64,000 nt of DNA, from NCBI GenBank assembly GCA_903932145.1, contig CAIZFE010000098.1:62001-126000 (forward strand), given 5' to 3'. This document shows, one piece after another, positions 53,227 through 61,698 of this stretch. The translations under genes and the position numbers were made by a program. Origin of the DNA: an uncultured Rhodopila sp. GTDB taxonomy: Bacteria > Pseudomonadota > Alphaproteobacteria > Acetobacterales > Acetobacteraceae. The number at the start of each line of letters is the position of its first letter. The stretch's first letter is position 1. The notes under the pieces were generated by a model. That model did no database searches and was not told the DNA's origin. It worked only from the letters and a program-made list of their open reading frames with translations.

Positions 53227-55281
53227 ATGCCCAATCTGTCTCGCCCCCATCTTTCGCGCAGGGGCCTTCTGGCCACGCTTGCCGCCAGCCCGGTCGCCAT
53301 GGCCTTGCTGACCGAGGCCGCTCGCGCCGCCGATTTGGCCGCCTCCGGTCTGGTCGGGGAATTGCAGGGCCCGACCATGATCACCGACCCGGCGAAATGG
53401 CCGACAAAATTCCAGGAAGCCCCGATGCTGGCCGAACGGGTCAAGGCCGGCAAGCTGCCGCCGGTCGCCGAACGCATCCCGGCCGAACCAATGGTATGGC
53501 AGCCGCTGAACGAAACCGGCAAATACGGCGGCACCTGGCGCCGCGCCTTCACCGGCCCCGGCGACGTGGAAAACGCCAACCGCATCAATGCGTCCGATAA
53601 GTGCTTCTTCTGGAGCGCCGATGGCAGCAAGATCGTCCCTTGCGTCGCCAAGGCGTACGAACTCAGCGACGACGGCAAGACCTACACGATGCACCTGCGC
53701 AAGGGCATGAAATGGTCCGACGGGTCCCCGTTCACCGCCGATGATTTCGTGTTCTGGTTTGAGGATATCTACGGCAACAAGGAGATCGTTCCGACGCCAA
53801 CGACGGACATGAGCCCGCAGGGCAAGCCGGGCCGTATCGTCAAGGTCGATGAGGTCACGGTTCGCTTCGAATTCGACGTGCCGTACTATCTGTTTGAGGA
53901 AATGATGGCCGGCGACACCCTGATCGGTGGCGGCCAGTCGGTAAGGCAGTCACAAAAACTCAGCTTCGGCGCGTATTCCCCCGGTCATTACCTGAAGCAG
54001 TTCCTGCCGAAATATTCCTCGCTGGAGGAAGTCAACGCCCGCGCCAAGAAAGAGGGTTTCGAGAATTGGCTGCAGATGCTGCACTTCAAGAAGGATTGGT
54101 CGCTGAATACGGAACTGCCGACGCTGGGTCCGTGGAAGACCGTCCAATCCATCAACAATCCCATTTGGCTGCTGGAGCGCAATCCGTTCTATTATGCGAT
54201 TGATACCGCGGGCAATCAGCTTCCCTACATGGACAAGGTGCAGTTGACGCTCGGCGAAAACCTGGAGGTCATCAATCTGCGTGCCATGGCCGGCGATTAT
54301 GACGAACAGGAACGCCACATCGACATCAGCAAGCTGCCGGTGCTGTTGGATAACCAGGATAAGGGCAACTACAAAGTCCATCTGGACCTGGGGTTTGCCG
54401 GCTCCGACTTCATCCTGCAGATCAACCAGAGCTACAAGGCCGACCCTGAAATTCGTAAATGGCTGACCAATGCGGATTTCCGCCGAGCGCTGTCGTTGGG
54501 TATCGACCGGGATCAGTTGAACGACACGTTCTGGCTCGGCGTCGGAACCCCTGGATCGCCTGTCCCCGGTGAATCGATGCCGCAGAATCCCGGGCCGGAA
54601 TGGCGCAAGAAATGGTCCGTGCTGGATGTCAGGCAAGCCAATGCCATGCTGGACAAGATCGGTCTGGCGAAGAAGGACAGCGCCGGCTTTCGCGTCCGCA
54701 CCGATAATGGGGAGCGGCTGCGCATCCAGATCGTGGCCATTCAGGCGTTCATGCCGTTTCCGAAGATGTCGGAAATGGTCGGCGATCAGTGGCAGAAGAT
54801 CGGCATTCAGGCCGACGTGCGCGAGATGGAACGCAACCTGGCGACAACCCGGGTGCGCAACAACGAGACGCATATTTACACCTGGAACAATGGCGGCACC
54901 GAACTGCTGTACCTGTTCCCGCGTCACGCCATCCCGGTCGATCCGACCGAGGCGTATATGGGACCGGAATACGCAAATTATTACGCCTCCGGCGGCACCC
55001 AAGGTATGAAGCCGGACGACCCGAACATTCTGCGCATATGGGAGCTGTTCACCGAGGCCGCCGGCCTGAAAGCCGAGGGCCGCAACCATAATGCGCAGGA
55101 GATCTGGAAAATCCTGGCCGATCAGCAATACGGCATCGGCACAGTCGGGCAATCACCCGCCGGCCTGGGTGTACGTCTGGTCAGTAACAAACTCGGGAAT
55201 ATCGCCTCGCGCGTCTGCAATGCCCAGCATTGCCGCACGCCGGGCAATTCGCATGCCGAAACCTGGTATTTCAAAGCCTGA
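53227..55281 (+). CDS. peptide-type ABC transporter substrate-binding protein
   Basis: A 684-residue family-5 binding protein with a Tat signal (SRRGLLATLAASPVAMAL, ending ARA). Family features include the KYGGTWRRAF start of the lobe, LSDDGKTYTMHLRKGMKWSD, the DFRRALSLGIDRDQLN helix, and SPAGLGVRLVSNKLGN near the end. It is larger than DppA/OppA, similar to those for longer or modified peptides. Its stop overlaps the first permease start (TGATG). Confidence 0.9.
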   Translation: MPNLSRPHLSRRGLLATLAASPVAMALLTEAARAADLAASGLVGELQGPTMITDPAKWPTKFQEAPMLAERVKAGKLPPVAERIPAEPMVWQPLNETGKYGGTWRRAFTGPGDVENANRINASDKCFFWSADGSKIVPCVAKAYELSDDGKTYTMHLRKGMKWSDGSPFTADDFVFWFEDIYGNKEIVPTPTTDMSPQGKPGRIVKVDEVTVRFEFDVPYYLFEEMMAGDTLIGGGQSVRQSQKLSFGAYSPGHYLKQFLPKYSSLEEVNARAKKEGFENWLQMLHFKKDWSLNTELPTLGPWKTVQSINNPIWLLERNPFYYAIDTAGNQLPYMDKVQLTLGENLEVINLRAMAGDYDEQERHIDISKLPVLLDNQDKGNYKVHLDLGFAGSDFILQINQSYKADPEIRKWLTNADFRRALSLGIDRDQLNDTFWLGVGTPGSPVPGESMPQNPGPEWRKKWSVLDVRQANAMLDKIGLAKKDSAGFRVRTDNGERLRIQIVAIQAFMPFPKMSEMVGDQWQKIGIQADVREMERNLATTRVRNNETHIYTWNNGGTELLYLFPRHAIPVDPTEAYMGPEYANYYASGGTQGMKPDDPNILRIWELFTEAAGLKAEGRNHNAQEIWKILADQQYGIGTVGQSPAGLGVRLVSNKLGNIASRVCNAQHCRTPGNSHAETWYFKA

Positions 55282-56273
55282 TGCTGGCCTATCTCGTCCG
55301 GCGCGTGGGTTTGGCGGTGATCACCATATGGGCGATCACCATCGTCACCTTCATCATCCTGCAGTTGCCACCGGGCGACTTCGTGGACGCCTATGTGGCG
55401 CAAGCGTCCGCCATGGGCACCGCGATTTCGGCCGGGGAGGCCGCGGCGTTGCGCCACGCCTATGGCCTGGATCAGTCGGTCTGGGTGCAGTATTACAAGT
55501 GGATGGCGCACATCGTGCACGGTGAGTTCGGCCAGTCGTTCGAATATGGCCGGCCGGTGACCGAGGTGATTGGCGACAGATTGTGGCTGACGATTTTGCT
55601 GTCGATCGGCGCGATCATCGTCACATGGGGGCTGGCGCTGCCGATCGGGATTTACTCGGCGGTGCGGCAATACTCGATCGGCGACTACATCTTCACGTTT
55701 ATCGGATTTGTCGGGTTGGCGGTCCCGAATTTTCTGCTGGCTCTGATCATCATGTATGTCGGCCTGCGGGTCTTCAACGTCAGCGTCGGCGGTCTGTTTT
55801 CGTCGGAGTTCCAGTTGGCGCCCTGGTCGTGGGCGAAGGTCTGGGATCTGGCCGGGCATTTACCGGTTCCGATGCTGATCCTGGCCCTGGCCGGCACCGC
55901 GCAATTGGTACGAATCATGCGCGCCAACCTGCTGGACGAACTGCGTCGCCCCTACGTCGTGACGGCCCGAGCGCGCGGGCTGTCCGAACGGCGGGTGATC
56001 ATGAAATACCCTGTGCGGGCGGCGCTGAATCCGTTCGCCTCTACGATCGGCTATCTGTTGCCGTACACCGTGTCCGGTAGCGTGATTATTTCCGTCGTGC
56101 TGAGCCTGCCGACGGTCGGGCCGCTGTTGCTGCATTCGCTGATCTCCCAGGACATGCTGCTGGGATCGACCATTATCCTGATGCTGGGCGTATTGACCGT
56201 GTTCGGCACCTTATTGTCCGACCTGCTGCTGATGTGGATCGATCCCCGCATCCGGCTGGGGCAGCTCAAATGA
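55281..56273 (+). CDS. ABC transporter permease, DppB/OppB type
   Basis: A 330-residue permease. The first helix is AYLVRRVGLAVITIWAITI, then VTFIILQLPPGDFV. The central part has LLSIGAIIVTWGLALPIGIY and the EAA loop TARARGLSERRVIMKYPVRA. About six membrane helices. Part of a five-gene importer with 1-8 nt overlaps. Confidence 0.92.
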   Translation: MLAYLVRRVGLAVITIWAITIVTFIILQLPPGDFVDAYVAQASAMGTAISAGEAAALRHAYGLDQSVWVQYYKWMAHIVHGEFGQSFEYGRPVTEVIGDRLWLTILLSIGAIIVTWGLALPIGIYSAVRQYSIGDYIFTFIGFVGLAVPNFLLALIIMYVGLRVFNVSVGGLFSSEFQLAPWSWAKVWDLAGHLPVPMLILALAGTAQLVRIMRANLLDELRRPYVVTARARGLSERRVIMKYPVRAALNPFASTIGYLLPYTVSGSVIISVVLSLPTVGPLLLHSLISQDMLLGSTIILMLGVLTVFGTLLSDLLLMWIDPRIRLGQLK

Positions 56274-57376
56274 GCGCCACGACAGCCGAGAATAAGGTTG
56301 CGGTCGCATCGCAACGGCAATTGATCTGGTGGCGCTTTCGCAAACACAAACTGGCCCTGGTCAGCGCGTTCATCGTGGCGGCATTCTATCTGGTGGCGAT
56401 GTTCGCCGATACGATCGCCTATACAGAGCCGTTCGATACCCAATCCGCCCGCAGCTACATCCCGCCGCAGCCGATCACCTGGTTCGACGCGGACGGACAT
56501 TTTCATCCGACGGTCAACGCGCTGAAAGGCAAGCGCGACCCGCGCACGTTCAAGCTGTCGTATGCGCCCGACCCCGGCGAAACGCGCGACCTGGTCTTGT
56601 TCGGTCACGGCTATGAGTATCGCCTGTTCGGCCTGATTCCGACCGACATCCACCTGCTGGGTGTGTCCAACAGCCGTCCACAGGATGCACTTTTCCTGCT
56701 CGGCACCGACCAGCTTGGCCGGGATGTGTTTTCGCGGTTGGTCCTGGCAAGCCGTACATCGCTGACCATCGGTCTGGTCGGTGTCGTGATGTCCCTGGTG
56801 TTGGGCGTTCTGTTGGGCGGCATATCCGGCCTGTACGGCGGTTGGATCGACGTCGTCATCCAGCGCGTCATCGAAATCTTGCGATCCATTCCGACCATTC
56901 CGTTGTGGATGGGCCTCGCCGCGGCGGTGCCGAACAGTTGGACACCGCAACAGGTTTATTTCGTGATCACGCTGATTATCAGCCTGATCGGCTGGACCGA
57001 ACTCGCCCGGGTGGTCCGGGGCCGCTTCCTGGCGCTTCGAGAGGAAGACTTCATTACCGCCGCCGAACTGGCCGGCGCGTCACAAATGAGGATCATCTTC
57101 AAGCACATGGTCCCCAGCTTCCTGTCGCACATCATCGCCGCCGTCAGTCTGGCGTTGCCGGCGATGATCATCAGTGAAACGACCCTGTCATTCCTCGGGC
57201 TGGGTTTGCGGCCGCCGGCGATTTCCTGGGGCGTGCTGTTGCAAGACGCGCAGAATCTGCAAACCCTCGCCCTGGCCCCGTGGCTGCTGGTGGTCGCCCT
57301 TCCGGTGATCGTCGTCATCCTCGCCTTCAACTTCCTCGGCGACGGCCTGAGAGACGCGGCAGATCCCTATGGCTGA
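56270..57376 (+). CDS. ABC transporter permease, DppC/OppC type
   Basis: A 368-residue permease. An N-terminal region with one helix (VSAFIVAAFYLVAMFADTIA) is followed by a large periplasmic stretch (about 50-140) typical of OppC-type subunits of this class, then FLLGTDQLGRDVFSRLVLAS and five more helices with the EAA loop ITAAELAGASQMRIIFKHMV. Its ATG overlaps the previous stop (ATGA). Confidence 0.92.
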   Translation: MSATTAENKVAVASQRQLIWWRFRKHKLALVSAFIVAAFYLVAMFADTIAYTEPFDTQSARSYIPPQPITWFDADGHFHPTVNALKGKRDPRTFKLSYAPDPGETRDLVLFGHGYEYRLFGLIPTDIHLLGVSNSRPQDALFLLGTDQLGRDVFSRLVLASRTSLTIGLVGVVMSLVLGVLLGGISGLYGGWIDVVIQRVIEILRSIPTIPLWMGLAAAVPNSWTPQQVYFVITLIISLIGWTELARVVRGRFLALREEDFITAAELAGASQMRIIFKHMVPSFLSHIIAAVSLALPAMIISETTLSFLGLGLRPPAISWGVLLQDAQNLQTLALAPWLLVVALPVIVVILAFNFLGDGLRDAADPYG

Positions 57377-58373
57377 TGAACCCATCTTGAGCGTGCGCGA
57401 CCTGCACACGCATTTCTTCGCCGATGAGGGCGTGGTGCGCGCCGTCGATGGCACATCGTTCGACCTGCACAGCGGTCGAACGTTGGGGATTGTCGGCGAG
57501 TCCGGCTGCGGCAAGAGCGTCACCGCGAAGTCTATCTTGCGTATTGTCGAGCGTCCCGGCCGCATTGTCAGCGGTCAGATCATGCTGCGGCGACAAAATG
57601 GATCGACCGTAGACCTGACGACGCTGCCCACCGACGGGCGCGAGATGCGCAGTATTCGCGGCGGCGAGATCGGGCTGGTGTTCCAGGAACCGATGAGTTC
57701 GCTGTCGGCCTTCCACACCATCGGTAACCAACTGATGGAAGGCATCCGTCTGCATAAAGACCTGAGCAAGCGGGCGATCCGCGAGCAGGCGATCGAACTG
57801 CTCAACATGGTGGGCATCCCCCGCCCGGCGCAACGGATCGATTCGTATTCGTTCGAACTCTCCGGCGGCCTGCGTCAACGTGTCATGATTGCAATGGCGT
57901 TGGCGGCCGAACCGCGTGTGCTGATCGCCGACGAACCCACGACCGCGCTGGATGTGACGACGCAGGCGCAGATTCTCGATCTGATCCGCCGTTTGCAGCA
58001 GGAGCGCGACCTGGCGGTGATGCTGATCACCCACGACATGGGGGTGATCGCCGAGATGGCGGACGACGTGGTCGTCATGTACCTCGGCAAGGAAGTCGAA
58101 AAAGGCCCGGTGGACGAGATTTTCCACGCGCCACGGCATCCTTATACACAATCCCTGCTGCGCTCGATCCCCAGCGTTCTGGCCGAACCGAGATCGCGTC
58201 TGGCAACGATTACCGGATCGATACCGCATCCATTTGCCCGGCCCGGCGGTTGTCCGTTCCACCCGCGCTGTCCGGATCGCCATGACGTCTGCGAAATCAT
58301 CGTGCCGGCTGAAGTCGTGATCGGCGAGAACCACGTCACTGCCTGCCATCTTTACACCAAGGTGCCGGCATGA
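57369..58373 (+). CDS. ABC transporter ATPase, DppD/OppD type
   Basis: A 334-residue ATPase. Walker A is GESGCGKSV, the Q-loop [10 protein letters not shown], the signature [15 protein letters not shown], Walker [14 protein letters not shown] and the switch His [11 protein letters not shown]. The C-terminal region has [14 protein letters not shown], which holds Cys residues typical of the Fe-S-like domain of OppD/DppD. It overlaps the permease by 8 nt. Confidence 0.93.
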
Positions 58374-59377
58374 CGGTTCTCGACGTCCGACACTTGCGGA
58401 AGCATTTTCCCTTGCGACGGGGTCTGCTTGGTCGCACGGCCGGCTACGTGAAGGCTGTGGATGACGTTTCGTTTTCGATCGAAGCGGGGGAGACGTTGTC
58501 GCTGGTCGGCGAATCCGGCTGCGGCAAAACCACGACGTCTCGCTGTATCCTGCGCGCGATCAGACCGTCCAGCGGCGAAATTCTGTTTCGCACCGGAACC
58601 GGCGAGCAGGTTGACGTGGCGCCGCTGGAGAAGAAACAACTGCGGCCGCTGCGGCGGCAAATGCAGATGATTTTTCAGGATCCGTTTTCTTCGCTGAACC
58701 CGCGCATGACGATTTCCGAAATCATCGGCGAGCCGATGCTGGTGAACGGGATGACCGACACCACGATACGCAACAAACGCGTCGCGGACCTGCTGGAGTT
58801 GGTGCAACTTCCCAGTGCCTATCTCAATCGCTTCCCACACGCGTTCTCCGGCGGCCAACGTCAGCGCATCGGCATCGCCCGTGCCCTGGCGCTGAACCCG
58901 TCGCTGATTGTGGCGGATGAACCGGTGTCGGCGCTGGACGTTTCGGTGCAGGCGCAGATCGTCAATCTGATGCTGGACCTGCAGGACCGGCTCGGTCTCG
59001 CCTACTTGTTTGTCGCGCACGACCTTTCTGTGGTGAAACATGTCAGTCACCGCGTGGCGGTGATGTATGTCGGCCGCATTGTCGAAATCGCGCCGACGAC
59101 GGGTCTCTTCAACACGCCGCGGCATCCGTACACCGAGGCGCTGCTGTCCGCCGTGCCGGTGCCCGATCCTCGCCGCAGAGCGCAACGCATCGTGCTGGAG
59201 GGGGATGTGGCGGATCCGTCCAATCCGCCGTCCGGCTGCCATTTTCACCCGCGTTGCCAATACGCGACGGACCAATGCCGGATCGAAACGCCGGCGTTGC
59301 GCGAAATCGCCCCCGGCCACAGTGTGCGCTGCCTGCGGGCAGAGGAATTGTCGCTCGTGGGCGTTCCGGCCGCGTAG
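58370..59377 (+). CDS. ABC transporter ATPase, DppF/OppF type
   Basis: A 335-residue ATPase. Walker [11 protein letters not shown]-loop [15 protein letters not shown], signature [15 protein letters not shown], Walker [14 protein letters not shown] and switch His [10 protein letters not shown]. The C-terminal Cys domain is [15 protein letters not shown]. It overlaps the DppD-type gene (ATGA). It is last in the transporter operon. Confidence 0.93.
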
Positions 59378-59417
59378 CCAGCTTGCGCCGTTCGGCGCGC
59401 CATGCCAGGGTCCATGA

Positions 59418-60587
59418 ATGGCGCGCCCGGAAGACATCCCCCAGCCGACCCGCGATGTGGTTTTGAACCTGCCGTGCCCGGCGTTCGACACAACGCCCTT
59501 CGTCGCCGGCCCACCGCTATCGCAACGACGCATCGCGATCGTGACCAGCGCCGCCCTGATCGTCCGCGGCGACAAGCCGTTCGCATTCGGCTCCGGCGAG
59601 GCTCGTTTTATACCCGCTGACACCGCACCCGGCGATTTGTTGCTCAGTCATGTCTCGATCAACTTCGATCGCGCCGGCTGGCAGCGTGACATCAACGTCG
59701 TGTATCCGATCGACCGGCTGCGGGACCTCGCCGCGCTCGGCGAAATCGGCGGCGTGGCGGACACGCATTACACGGTCATGGGGTCCACCGACCCGGCCGC
59801 GATGGACGCGGCGGTGGACCAGATAGTGGGGCAGTTGAAGCAGGAGCGGATCGATTCCGTCCTGCTCACACCTGTCTGACCGCTTTGCACGCGCGCCGTG
59901 TGCGCGCTTTCACACAAGCTTGAAGAACGCGGTTTCTCGACGGTGGCGATAGCCAGCGCGCGGGGGCAGGCCGAGAAAACCCGCCCGCCGCGTGCCCTGT
60001 GGACCCCGGCCATGCTGGGACGCCCGGTGTGCGAGCCGTCGGACCCGGCGTTCCAATTGCGCGTTCTGCGGATGGCGCTGGCGTTGCTGGAACGAACGGA
60101 TGGACCGGTCATCCTGGAAGACTTCCCGGATGATCCGCCGGGCTGGTTGGACAACCCGGACTGGACCGCGCCGGTCACAGACCCGTCCACAGCCTTCGCT
60201 GCGGAACTGCGTGCCATTCTACCACTCTGGGAAACCGCACAGGCGCGGTTTGGCCGAACATCGGTCGGGTTGAGTTTTCAGGCTCCGTCGGCATGGCCTG
60301 ACTTCGCCGCCGCCATCCTGGCCGGAGAACTGCAGGTGGTGCCGCAATTGGACACCACCGCGCTGTCGGTGCGCTTCCTGTGCGACGACATCAAGGCGCT
60401 GTATGGCGAGGCCGCGCAGGCTGTCGGGCCAGCTCCATCCGCCAAACAGGTGGACACCTGGTTCTGGCGGCACACGGCGGCCGGCGCACTGCTACAGGCA
60501 TTGCGTCGCACGGCGATGGACAGCGAGAACAACGCACTGAAAACCGTCGGCGGCCGGTTTTTTGTGCCGACGCCTTGGGTTGCATAG
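59418..60587 (+). CDS. GrdB/PrdB-related selenoprotein B family reductase, in-frame UGA
   Basis: Two frames, 59418-59879 and 59898-60587, are one reading frame divided only by a TGA at 59877-59879. Read through, it gives 389 residues with Sec at 154 in the motif U-P-L-C-T-R, which matches the U-x-x-C-T-R redox motif of glycine/betaine/sarcosine/D-proline reductase selenoprotein B. The strand before it (ERIDSVLLTPV) and the helix after (SHKLEERGFSTVAI) fit that family, as do RIAIVTSAALIV near residue 40 and the HVSINFDRAGWQRDINVVYP block. A hairpin follows the TGA (see next entry). The UGA is best read as selenocysteine. It follows the peptide transporter operon by 40 nt. No selA, selB, selC or selD gene is in the window. 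Confidence 0.8.
59877..59907 (+). promoter_or_regulatory. candidate bacterial SECIS hairpin
   Basis: After the UGA come 11 nt, then a hairpin: GCGCGC (59891-59896), loop CGTGT (59897-59901), GCGCGC (59902-59907). The spacing and the 17 nt size match the minimal upper stem-loop known for E. coli fdhF, and the loop has G then U in its apex. A bulged U as in fdhF is not present. This is a by-eye fold. Confidence 0.6.
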
Positions 60588-61137: not shown

Positions 61138-61698
61138 ATGAACGCACTTGACCTGATGCTCAGCCGTGAATCGGCATTGAAACTCGTATCACCTGGCCCC
61201 TCAGCCGAGGAACTGGATCAGATGTTCGCGACCGCAGTGCGGGCACCGGATCACGGCCGGCTACGGCCGTGGCGGTTTGTGGTCATCAACGAGGACCGGC
61301 GGGCAGCGTTCGGCGACCTGATGGCGGACTCGTTGCGACGTCGCGACCCGGCGGCGACCGAACCGGCGTTGCAGCGGGAGCGGGACAAGGCGTTTCGGTC
61401 GCCGGTGATCGTCGTGGTCGCGGCCAAGGTGAAACGCGGCTTGCCCATTCCGGAGATCGAACAGATCGCCTCCGCGTCGGCGGCGGCGCAGACGATCATG
61501 TTAGCGGCGCCCGCGTTGGGCTTTGGCGCGGTCTGGAAGACCGGCGCTCCAGCCTATGACCCGGCGGTGAAGCTGGCGTTGGGACTGGCCGCCGAGGACG
61601 ACATCATTGGTTTTCTGTATATCGGCACGCGAGCCGGCGGTTCGTCGCCGATCCCACGTCCTGAGGCGAAGGATTTCGTGACCACCTGGGCGGGATAG
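61138..61698 (+). CDS. nitroreductase family protein (YdjA-like)
   Basis: A 186-residue FMN-binding nitroreductase of the short YdjA type: AVRAPDHGRLRPWRFVV gives the FMN phosphate-binding Arg set, then ASAAAQTIMLAAPALGFGAVWKTG with the second FMN loop, and DIIGFLYIGT near the end. Probably dimeric; the substrate is unknown. A terminator follows. Confidence 0.88.
   Translation: MNALDLMLSRESALKLVSPGPSAEELDQMFATAVRAPDHGRLRPWRFVVINEDRRAAFGDLMADSLRRRDPAATEPALQRERDKAFRSPVIVVVAAKVKRGLPIPEIEQIASASAAAQTIMLAAPALGFGAVWKTGAPAYDPAVKLALGLAAEDDIIGFLYIGTRAGGSSPIPRPEAKDFVTTWAG

What the first reader, a model, noticed from the sequence alone, without database searches (positions are those of the whole stretch)
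59418..60587. Probable selenoprotein: a GrdB/PrdB-related gene read through an in-frame UGA with a SECIS-like hairpin
Seen: two frames that look like separate hypothetical genes are one frame, split only by TGA at 59877-59879. Read through, the stop lies in U-P-L-C-T-R, aligned by eye with the U-x-x-C-T-R redox motif of selenoprotein B of glycine/betaine/D-proline reductases. Eleven nt after the UGA is a perfect 6 bp stem with a CGTGT loop. Known: bacterial SECIS hairpins sit just 3' of the UGA, with a short stem and G/U in the loop. Inference: a clostridial-type Stickland redox module, in an aerobic-looking alphaproteobacterium, placed directly behind a peptide importer. A standard gene caller would split it into two pseudo-genes.
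Basis: partly seen in the sequence, partly recalled or inferred. Interest (0 to 1): 0.88.

Follow-up and report, generated by a model that had tools for sequence, protein, structure and literature searches.

The report
Selenocysteine protein split by a stop codon
What looks like two short unknown genes is one gene for a selenium-containing enzyme whose internal UGA codon is read as selenocysteine; it belongs to a long-form relative of the clostridial proline-reductase subunit that is widespread in alphaproteobacteria and is split in two by ordinary gene calling.

Summary
Frame 59418-60587 is interrupted only by UGA 59877-59879. Within its genus, 18 of 33 genomes carry the full-length gene, all with UGA at that codon; a class-wide scan found 33 long-form UGA copies in about 15 families. 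The UGA aligns with the Sec of D-proline reductase PrdB. Five codons downstream are almost frozen at synonymous sites and form a 6-bp hairpin 11 nt after the UGA, with compensatory changes. The genome has selA, selB, selC and an NDH-SelD fusion. Three natural Cys versions have lost the hairpin and their genomes lack selA; 28 of 29 class genomes with the UGA form have selA. The 'Stickland module behind a peptide importer' reading is not supported: the pyruvoyl partner (PrdA/GrdE) was not found, GrdB/PrdB models score below cut-off, an extra conserved C-terminal domain is present, and the importer is next to it only in this species and one close relative. Best view: a stand-alone PrdB-like selenoprotein reductase of unknown substrate. 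PrdB selenoproteins in seawater were reported in 2005 and 2008, so this is a variant of a known kind.

The parts
59418..60587 (+). Selenoprotein gene (389 aa with Sec154), PrdB-like long form; stop TAG at 60585-60587
59877..59879 (+). In-frame UGA read as selenocysteine (residue 154)
   Evidence: same codon is UGA in all Sec relatives, TGC/TGT in three Cys relatives, and aligns with Sec of PrdB
59886..59888 (+). Cys157 of the UxxC redox pair
   Evidence: invariant in alignment A2
59891..59907 (+). Bacterial SECIS hairpin: 6-bp stem, 5-nt loop CGTGT containing GU, 11 nt after UGA
   Evidence: lost in Cys homologues
59466..60098 (+). PrdB/GrdB-related domain (residues 17-227)
   Evidence: PF07355 1.7e-8 (residues 17-151), TIGR04483 8.9e-27 (33-227):
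60135..60584 (+). Family-specific C-terminal helical domain (residues ~240-389; invariant F320, D323, D324, K326, E331, D346, W348, F349, W350), no Pfam or NCBIfam match
   Evidence: confident helical model
59407..59410 (+). AGGG, possible ribosome-binding site 7 nt before the ATG
   Evidence: read from the sequence; not tested
53227..59377 (+). Upstream Opp/Dpp-type ABC importer (SBP_bac_5 protein, two permeases, two ATPases), ends 40 nt before the gene; possibly co-transcribed here but not a conserved neighbour
61138..61698 (+). Nitroreductase-family gene downstream; among the loci compared, also next to the gene only in close relative L085

Best explanation
One gene encodes a 389-residue selenoprotein. 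During translation, SelB with Sec-tRNA(Sec) binds the hairpin at 59891-59907 and decodes UGA 59877-59879 as selenocysteine (comparative evidence, not measured). The N-terminal part (residues ~17-227) is a PrdB-like domain with Sec154 and Cys157 as a redox pair, plus residues shared with PrdB (H78, D84, D91, R192). The last ~150 residues are a helical domain special to this family. Inferred mechanism: the Sec selenolate attacks a small electrophilic or oxidised substrate, Cys157 resolves the adduct to a selenenylsulfide, and cellular thiols re-reduce it. Because no pyruvoyl subunit (PrdA/GrdE) was found, it probably does not run proline or glycine reduction by the Stickland mechanism; the C-terminal domain may supply substrate binding instead. 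Confidence by step: selenoprotein 0.97; not a Stickland reductase 0.85; stand-alone selenol/thiol reductase about 0.5; substrate unknown.
For: UGA at the same codon in 18 of 18 full-length genus copies, in 31 genome-contig loci including Burkholderiales and a Chloroflexota genome at 39% identity, and in 33 long-form copies of a class-wide scan. The U column aligns with Sec of PrdB and with C or U of shorter proteobacterial paralogues. Codons 159-163 lie in the most synonymously constrained stretch of the gene. SECIS stem: 92.7% of cells paired, four pairs with compensatory change, 0 of 500 shuffles as high; the Chloroflexota copy keeps 6 of 6 pairs with two double changes. selA, selC, selD and selB over cut-off in this genome. 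Three Cys forms make one clade within the Sec forms (100/100), have lost the hairpin, and their genomes lack selA (0 of 3), against 28 of 29 for UGA-form genomes. selA lies within 16 kb in 12 of 28. An NDH-SelD fusion gene is the neighbour in eight distinct loci of four families. PF09338 absent with ringing controls.
Against: No direct protein evidence. The single-sequence hairpin is not more stable than shuffles, and one stem pair (columns 17-29) is unpaired in 14 of 41 sequences. Two genus genomes with the UGA gene (G004, G026) show neither selA nor selC, and one class genome (G298) shows no selA; fragmented or misbinned assemblies are the likely cause but were not proven. Stand-alone action and substrate are inference; the neighbours are too varied to name a pathway. 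A PrdA-like partner too diverged for PF09338 is possible.
Confidence: 0.85

Rival explanations
1. It is a genuine D-proline/glycine/betaine reductase subunit: the Sec protein of a Stickland-type reductase fed by the upstream peptide importer.
For: Homology to PrdB (8.9e-27) and GrdH/GrdF (5e-15, 1e-13); UxxC and surrounding residues shared with PrdB; Opp importer 40 nt upstream.
Against: Scores far below equivalog cut-offs (94 vs 300; 55 vs 775); no PF09338 partner in this genome or five relatives although the model finds it in PrdA-bearing plasmids; importer not a conserved neighbour; extra C-terminal domain; GrdB's UxxCxxC not present (UPLCTRA).
Confidence: 0.06
2. The protein is a selenoprotein, but of detoxification or antioxidant metabolism working with glutathione (reductive removal of a leaving group or of a peroxide). 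This is a narrower version of the best explanation.
For: A glutathione S-transferase gene sits directly upstream in L067 (32 nt) and near the gene in L066 and in L132, L133 and L139/L150; most selenoproteins of known function are redox defence enzymes (PMC9312934).
Against: GST neighbours occur in only two lineages; other neighbours are unrelated (dehydrogenases, BacA, MFS, APH, enoyl-CoA hydratase).
Confidence: 0.3
3. UGA is a true stop: two adjacent genes, or a pseudogene made by one mutation.
For: Table-11 callers would find two ORFs; the second has a GTG start inside the hairpin.
Against: The same UGA in more than 50 relatives, including other classes and a Chloroflexota genome, purifying selection on both sides, Cys at the same codon in a nested clade, and frozen synonymous sites.
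Confidence: 0.02
4. UGA is read as tryptophan or by leaky read-through rather than as Sec.
For: None beyond the in-frame UGA.
Against: No aligned relative has Trp here; relatives have Sec (PrdB) or Cys (TGC/TGT); tRNA-Sec and SelA/B/D present; UGA forms track selA.
Confidence: 0.01

Closest known systems
D-proline reductase subunit PrdB (TIGR04483)
   Same: Homologous over residues 33-227; Sec aligned; UxxC; shared His/Asp/Arg positions
   Different: 29-31% identity, 94 bits vs cut-off 300; 389 vs ~240 residues, extra conserved C-terminal domain; no PrdA partner found; no prd genes next to it
PrdB-family selenoproteins reported from ocean metagenomes (PMC1088965, PMC2398784; pfam07355, UxxC)
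   Same: Same superfamily and motif, Sec and Cys forms, from seawater rather than clostridia
   Different: Those reports do not describe the long form, its extra domain or its context in the passages I read; some of their sequences may be this family, which I could not check
Short proteobacterial 'glycine/sarcosine/betaine reductase selenoprotein B family protein' (e.g. Roseomonas WP_207415257.1, Haematobacter WP_035710215.1; paralogue G000:C92)
   Same: Same PrdB-like domain, Cys or Sec at the same position, no pyruvoyl partner found in the own genome
   Different: About 30-35% identity, separate clade (100/100), PNCPVCHQT instead of PVUPxCTR, lacks the C-terminal domain, mostly Cys in this genus
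Glycine/betaine/sarcosine reductase GrdB/GrdH/GrdF
   Same: C-terminal half homologous (profile positions ~200-420), Sec aligned
   Different: Lacks the ~200-residue N-terminal part and the UxxCxxC motif; no GrdE found

Membership tests
Bacterial selenoprotein | In-frame UGA conserved, aligned with Sec/Cys in homologues | tested here: met
Bacterial selenoprotein | bSECIS hairpin just 3' of the UGA with GU in the loop | tested here: met
Bacterial selenoprotein | selA, selB, selC, selD in the genome | tested here: met
   all over cut-off
Bacterial selenoprotein | Sec present in the protein | not testable with these tools
   needs 75Se labelling or mass spectrometry
PF07355 GRDB superfamily | Score above gathering cut-off | tested here: met
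   34.6 vs 22 bits
D-proline reductase PrdB | TIGR04483 above cut-off 300 | tested here: not met
   94 bits; real PrdB L097 scores 422.6
D-proline reductase PrdB | PrdA pyruvoyl partner (PF09338) in the genome | tested here: not met
   none in G000 and five relatives, controls W01/W02 ring
D-proline reductase PrdB | UxxC with Sec | tested here: met
   UPLC
[quoted passage not shown]
   needs enzyme assay
GrdB/GrdF/GrdH | Equivalog/exception model above cut-off, full-length ~430 aa architecture | tested here: not met
   39-55 bits vs 602-800, only profile positions ~201-418 covered
GrdB/GrdF/GrdH | UxxCxxC motif | tested here: not met
   UPLCTRA; motif as given in PMC13188914
GrdB/GrdF/GrdH | GrdA (PF04723) partner | not tested

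The most novel reading that the evidence does not exclude
An undescribed long-form PrdB-like selenoprotein subfamily with a new fused C-terminal domain is one of the main users of the Sec machinery in Alphaproteobacteria (often in a selenium island with selA and NDH-SelD) and catalyses a partner-free selenol reduction unlike the pyruvoyl-dependent reductases.
Probability: 0.5. Interest if true: 0.65.

Novelty: new variant of a known kind. Interest (0 to 1): 0.52.

Why it matters
Selenoprotein genes are often split or truncated by gene callers. A 2006 census listed only one selenoprotein family (FdhA) for Alphaproteobacteria (PMC1794560). Here another is found in nearly a tenth of a class-wide genome sample (33 genomes with a Sec or Cys long form of 385), linked to selA and selD genes and with a natural Sec-to-Cys replacement that coincides with absence of selA and loss of the SECIS. 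It gives a clean system for testing what drives Sec retention, and it points to an unassigned reductase activity.

Tried and rejected
Single-sequence folding of the UGA region: no signal above shuffles; dropped as evidence. Rfam scan of the window: nothing. PDB sequence search: nothing convincing; Foldseek against PDB: no match with E <= 0.001, so the fold gave no functional lead. Neighbour-based assignment: neighbours too varied; Opp link specific to two species. Presence/absence of selC against the gene within the genus: weak test, because most of the genus has selC anyway (16 of 18 with the gene, 11 of 15 without); the class-wide Sec/Cys comparison was informative. IMG/VR scan: no viral relatives. 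Pseudogene, sequencing error and UGA=Trp rejected on comparative grounds.

Full report
Observation. The window frame starting ATG 59418 runs to TAG 60585-60587 with a single interruption, TGA 59877-59879. Ordinary gene calling gives two ORFs, 59418-59879 and 59898-60587. On its own it is not more stable than shuffled sequence, so comparison with relatives is what decides.

Sec decoding: conservation. A search of 58 relatives plus the own genome found 17 further full-length copies in the same genus, 59-86% identical, every one with exactly one in-frame UGA at the same codon. A scan of GTDB species genomes gave 32 loci, of which 31 cover the UGA codon, all with TGA there, mostly Acetobacteraceae (with titles such as Rhodopila sp. 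and Acidisphaera sp.), plus Burkholderiales, Desertibaculum and one Chloroflexota genome at 39% identity. These overlap in part with the genus copies. A scan of 385 genomes of the class found 33 long-form copies with the UGA, in about 15 families, and three without it; one of the 33 is partial and one also carries an in-frame TAG. Selection on the protein continues past the UGA: dN/dS is 0.11-0.29 downstream and 0.07-0.20 upstream against relatives of moderate distance. The U column aligns with the Sec of clostridial and lactobacillar PrdB, and with Cys or Sec of a shorter proteobacterial paralogue. The three long forms without UGA have TGC or TGT there.

Sec decoding: the SECIS. In 30 orthologues, codons 159-163 (CGC GCC GTG AGC GCG) are almost completely frozen at synonymous positions (only one GTA among the GTG), z 3.0-4.0 against the gene's own background, and the 10-codon window starting at 158 is the most constrained of the whole gene. 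These codons are the hairpin. Over 41 distinct sequences the six pairs are 92.7% paired; four pairs carry changes on both sides, and none of 500 shuffles reaches that. The Chloroflexota copy keeps a 6-bp stem at the same distance with different letters, GCACAC-CTGTG-GTGTGC. A caveat: related sequences can exceed shuffles without structure, and one pair is unpaired in 14 of 41. The three Cys forms no longer have the hairpin, and they make one well-supported clade nested among Sec forms, so Sec was probably replaced by Cys once in this sample.

Sec decoding: machinery. The own genome has selA (C4:61623-62954) with selC 22 nt downstream (71.8 bits), selB (C2, 409 bits) and a selD (C86, 300 bits), which is an NDH-SelD fusion, a fusion type known from many bacteria (PMC4561486). 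In the class sample, 28 of 29 genomes with the UGA long form have selA, against none of the three with the Cys long form and none of six chosen genomes with only short Cys forms (Fisher 6e-8, not corrected for relatedness). The exception, G298, holds the gene at the same coordinates and with the same sequence as L067, a contig whose gene is Acetobacteraceae-like, so misbinning is likely. In 12 of the 28, selA lies within 16 kb of the gene, in two only 131-133 nt away. In eight distinct loci from four families the neighbouring gene belongs to the NDH-SelD fusion cluster; two members were scored directly (L133/L151 and L139/L150 are the same places). The gene therefore tends to travel with selenium genes. 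Two genus genomes with the gene, G004 and G026, show neither selA nor selC, probably gaps in fragmented assemblies.

What it is. Residues 17-227 match PF07355 (1.7e-8) and PrdB TIGR04483 (8.9e-27), but all curated PrdB/GrdB models of NCBIfam stay below their cut-offs, while a true PrdB scores 422.6. The residues shared with PrdB and the short forms include H78, D84, D91, U154, C157 and R192, which suggests a common active site (inference). Residues ~240-389 form a helical domain in a confident model (mean pLDDT 89), strongly conserved down to the Chloroflexota copy, with no family match. No solved structure resembles the protein by sequence or fold.

What it does. Proline and glycine reductases need a pyruvoyl subunit (PrdA/GrdE; established knowledge of these enzymes). 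PF09338 finds none in this genome or five relatives and does find PrdA in two control plasmids. The GrdB motif UxxCxxC is not present. The Opp-type importer directly upstream is shared only with L085; elsewhere the neighbours are 2-hydroxyacid dehydrogenases, GST, EamA, BacA, MFS, APH, enoyl-CoA hydratase, D-aminopeptidase and others. The most likely mechanism is a partner-free selenol/thiol reductase: Sec154 attacks the substrate, Cys157 resolves, thiols recycle (inference). Substrate unknown. GST genes nearby in two lineages make glutathione-linked detoxification a reasonable sub-hypothesis.

What is known. PrdB-type selenoproteins with UxxC were reported from the Sargasso Sea (42 genes, PMC1088965) and GOS (235 Sec, 110 Cys, PMC2398784). 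A 2006 survey listed one selenoprotein family for Alphaproteobacteria and names FdhA as the only selenoprotein of Sec-decoding members (PMC1794560). Reviews of 2022 and 2026 list PrdB and GrdB (PMC9312934, PMC13188914), and I found no mention of a long form in the passages read. The long form is thus a new variant of a known kind as far as I could check; whether some ocean sequences already belong to it could not be checked.

Noticed in passing
G000:C92:6705-7403 (L087); L088-L092; many: A shorter PrdB-like paralogue (PNCPVCHQT / ANUPVCHQT) is in nearly every genome of the genus, mostly Cys, but with UGA at the same codon in several; some class genomes (G393, G221, G315) have three matches of the short form with UGA plus one long form.
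   Followed up: partly
L141, L142, L143: Three long forms with Cys instead of Sec, one clade, hairpin lost, genomes without selA: a natural Sec-to-Cys replacement.
   Followed up: yes
G321:C12, G228:C147 and ten more: The gene lies 0.13-16 kb from selA in 12 of 28 genomes: an alphaproteobacterial selenium island.
   Followed up: partly
L150, L151: Order Mo-hydroxylase large subunit - GST - selenoprotein - convergent NDH-SelD fusion in family f102.
   Followed up: partly
G000:C89:7570-9594: The only full-length formate dehydrogenase alpha above cut-off in this genome has no in-frame UGA, so FdhA does not appear to be what keeps the Sec machinery here.
   Followed up: partly
L067 / G298:C98: An Acetobacteraceae-like contig is filed under a MAG titled Candidatus Kuenenia stuttgartiensis: probable misbinning.
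   Followed up: no
L136 / L145 (G068:C4:226389-227573): A long-form copy with an additional in-frame TAG: possible decaying copy or assembly error.
   Followed up: no
L098:5776-7248: In Roseomonas haemaphysalidis the short Cys form lies next to a SelO (protein adenylyltransferase) gene.
   Followed up: no
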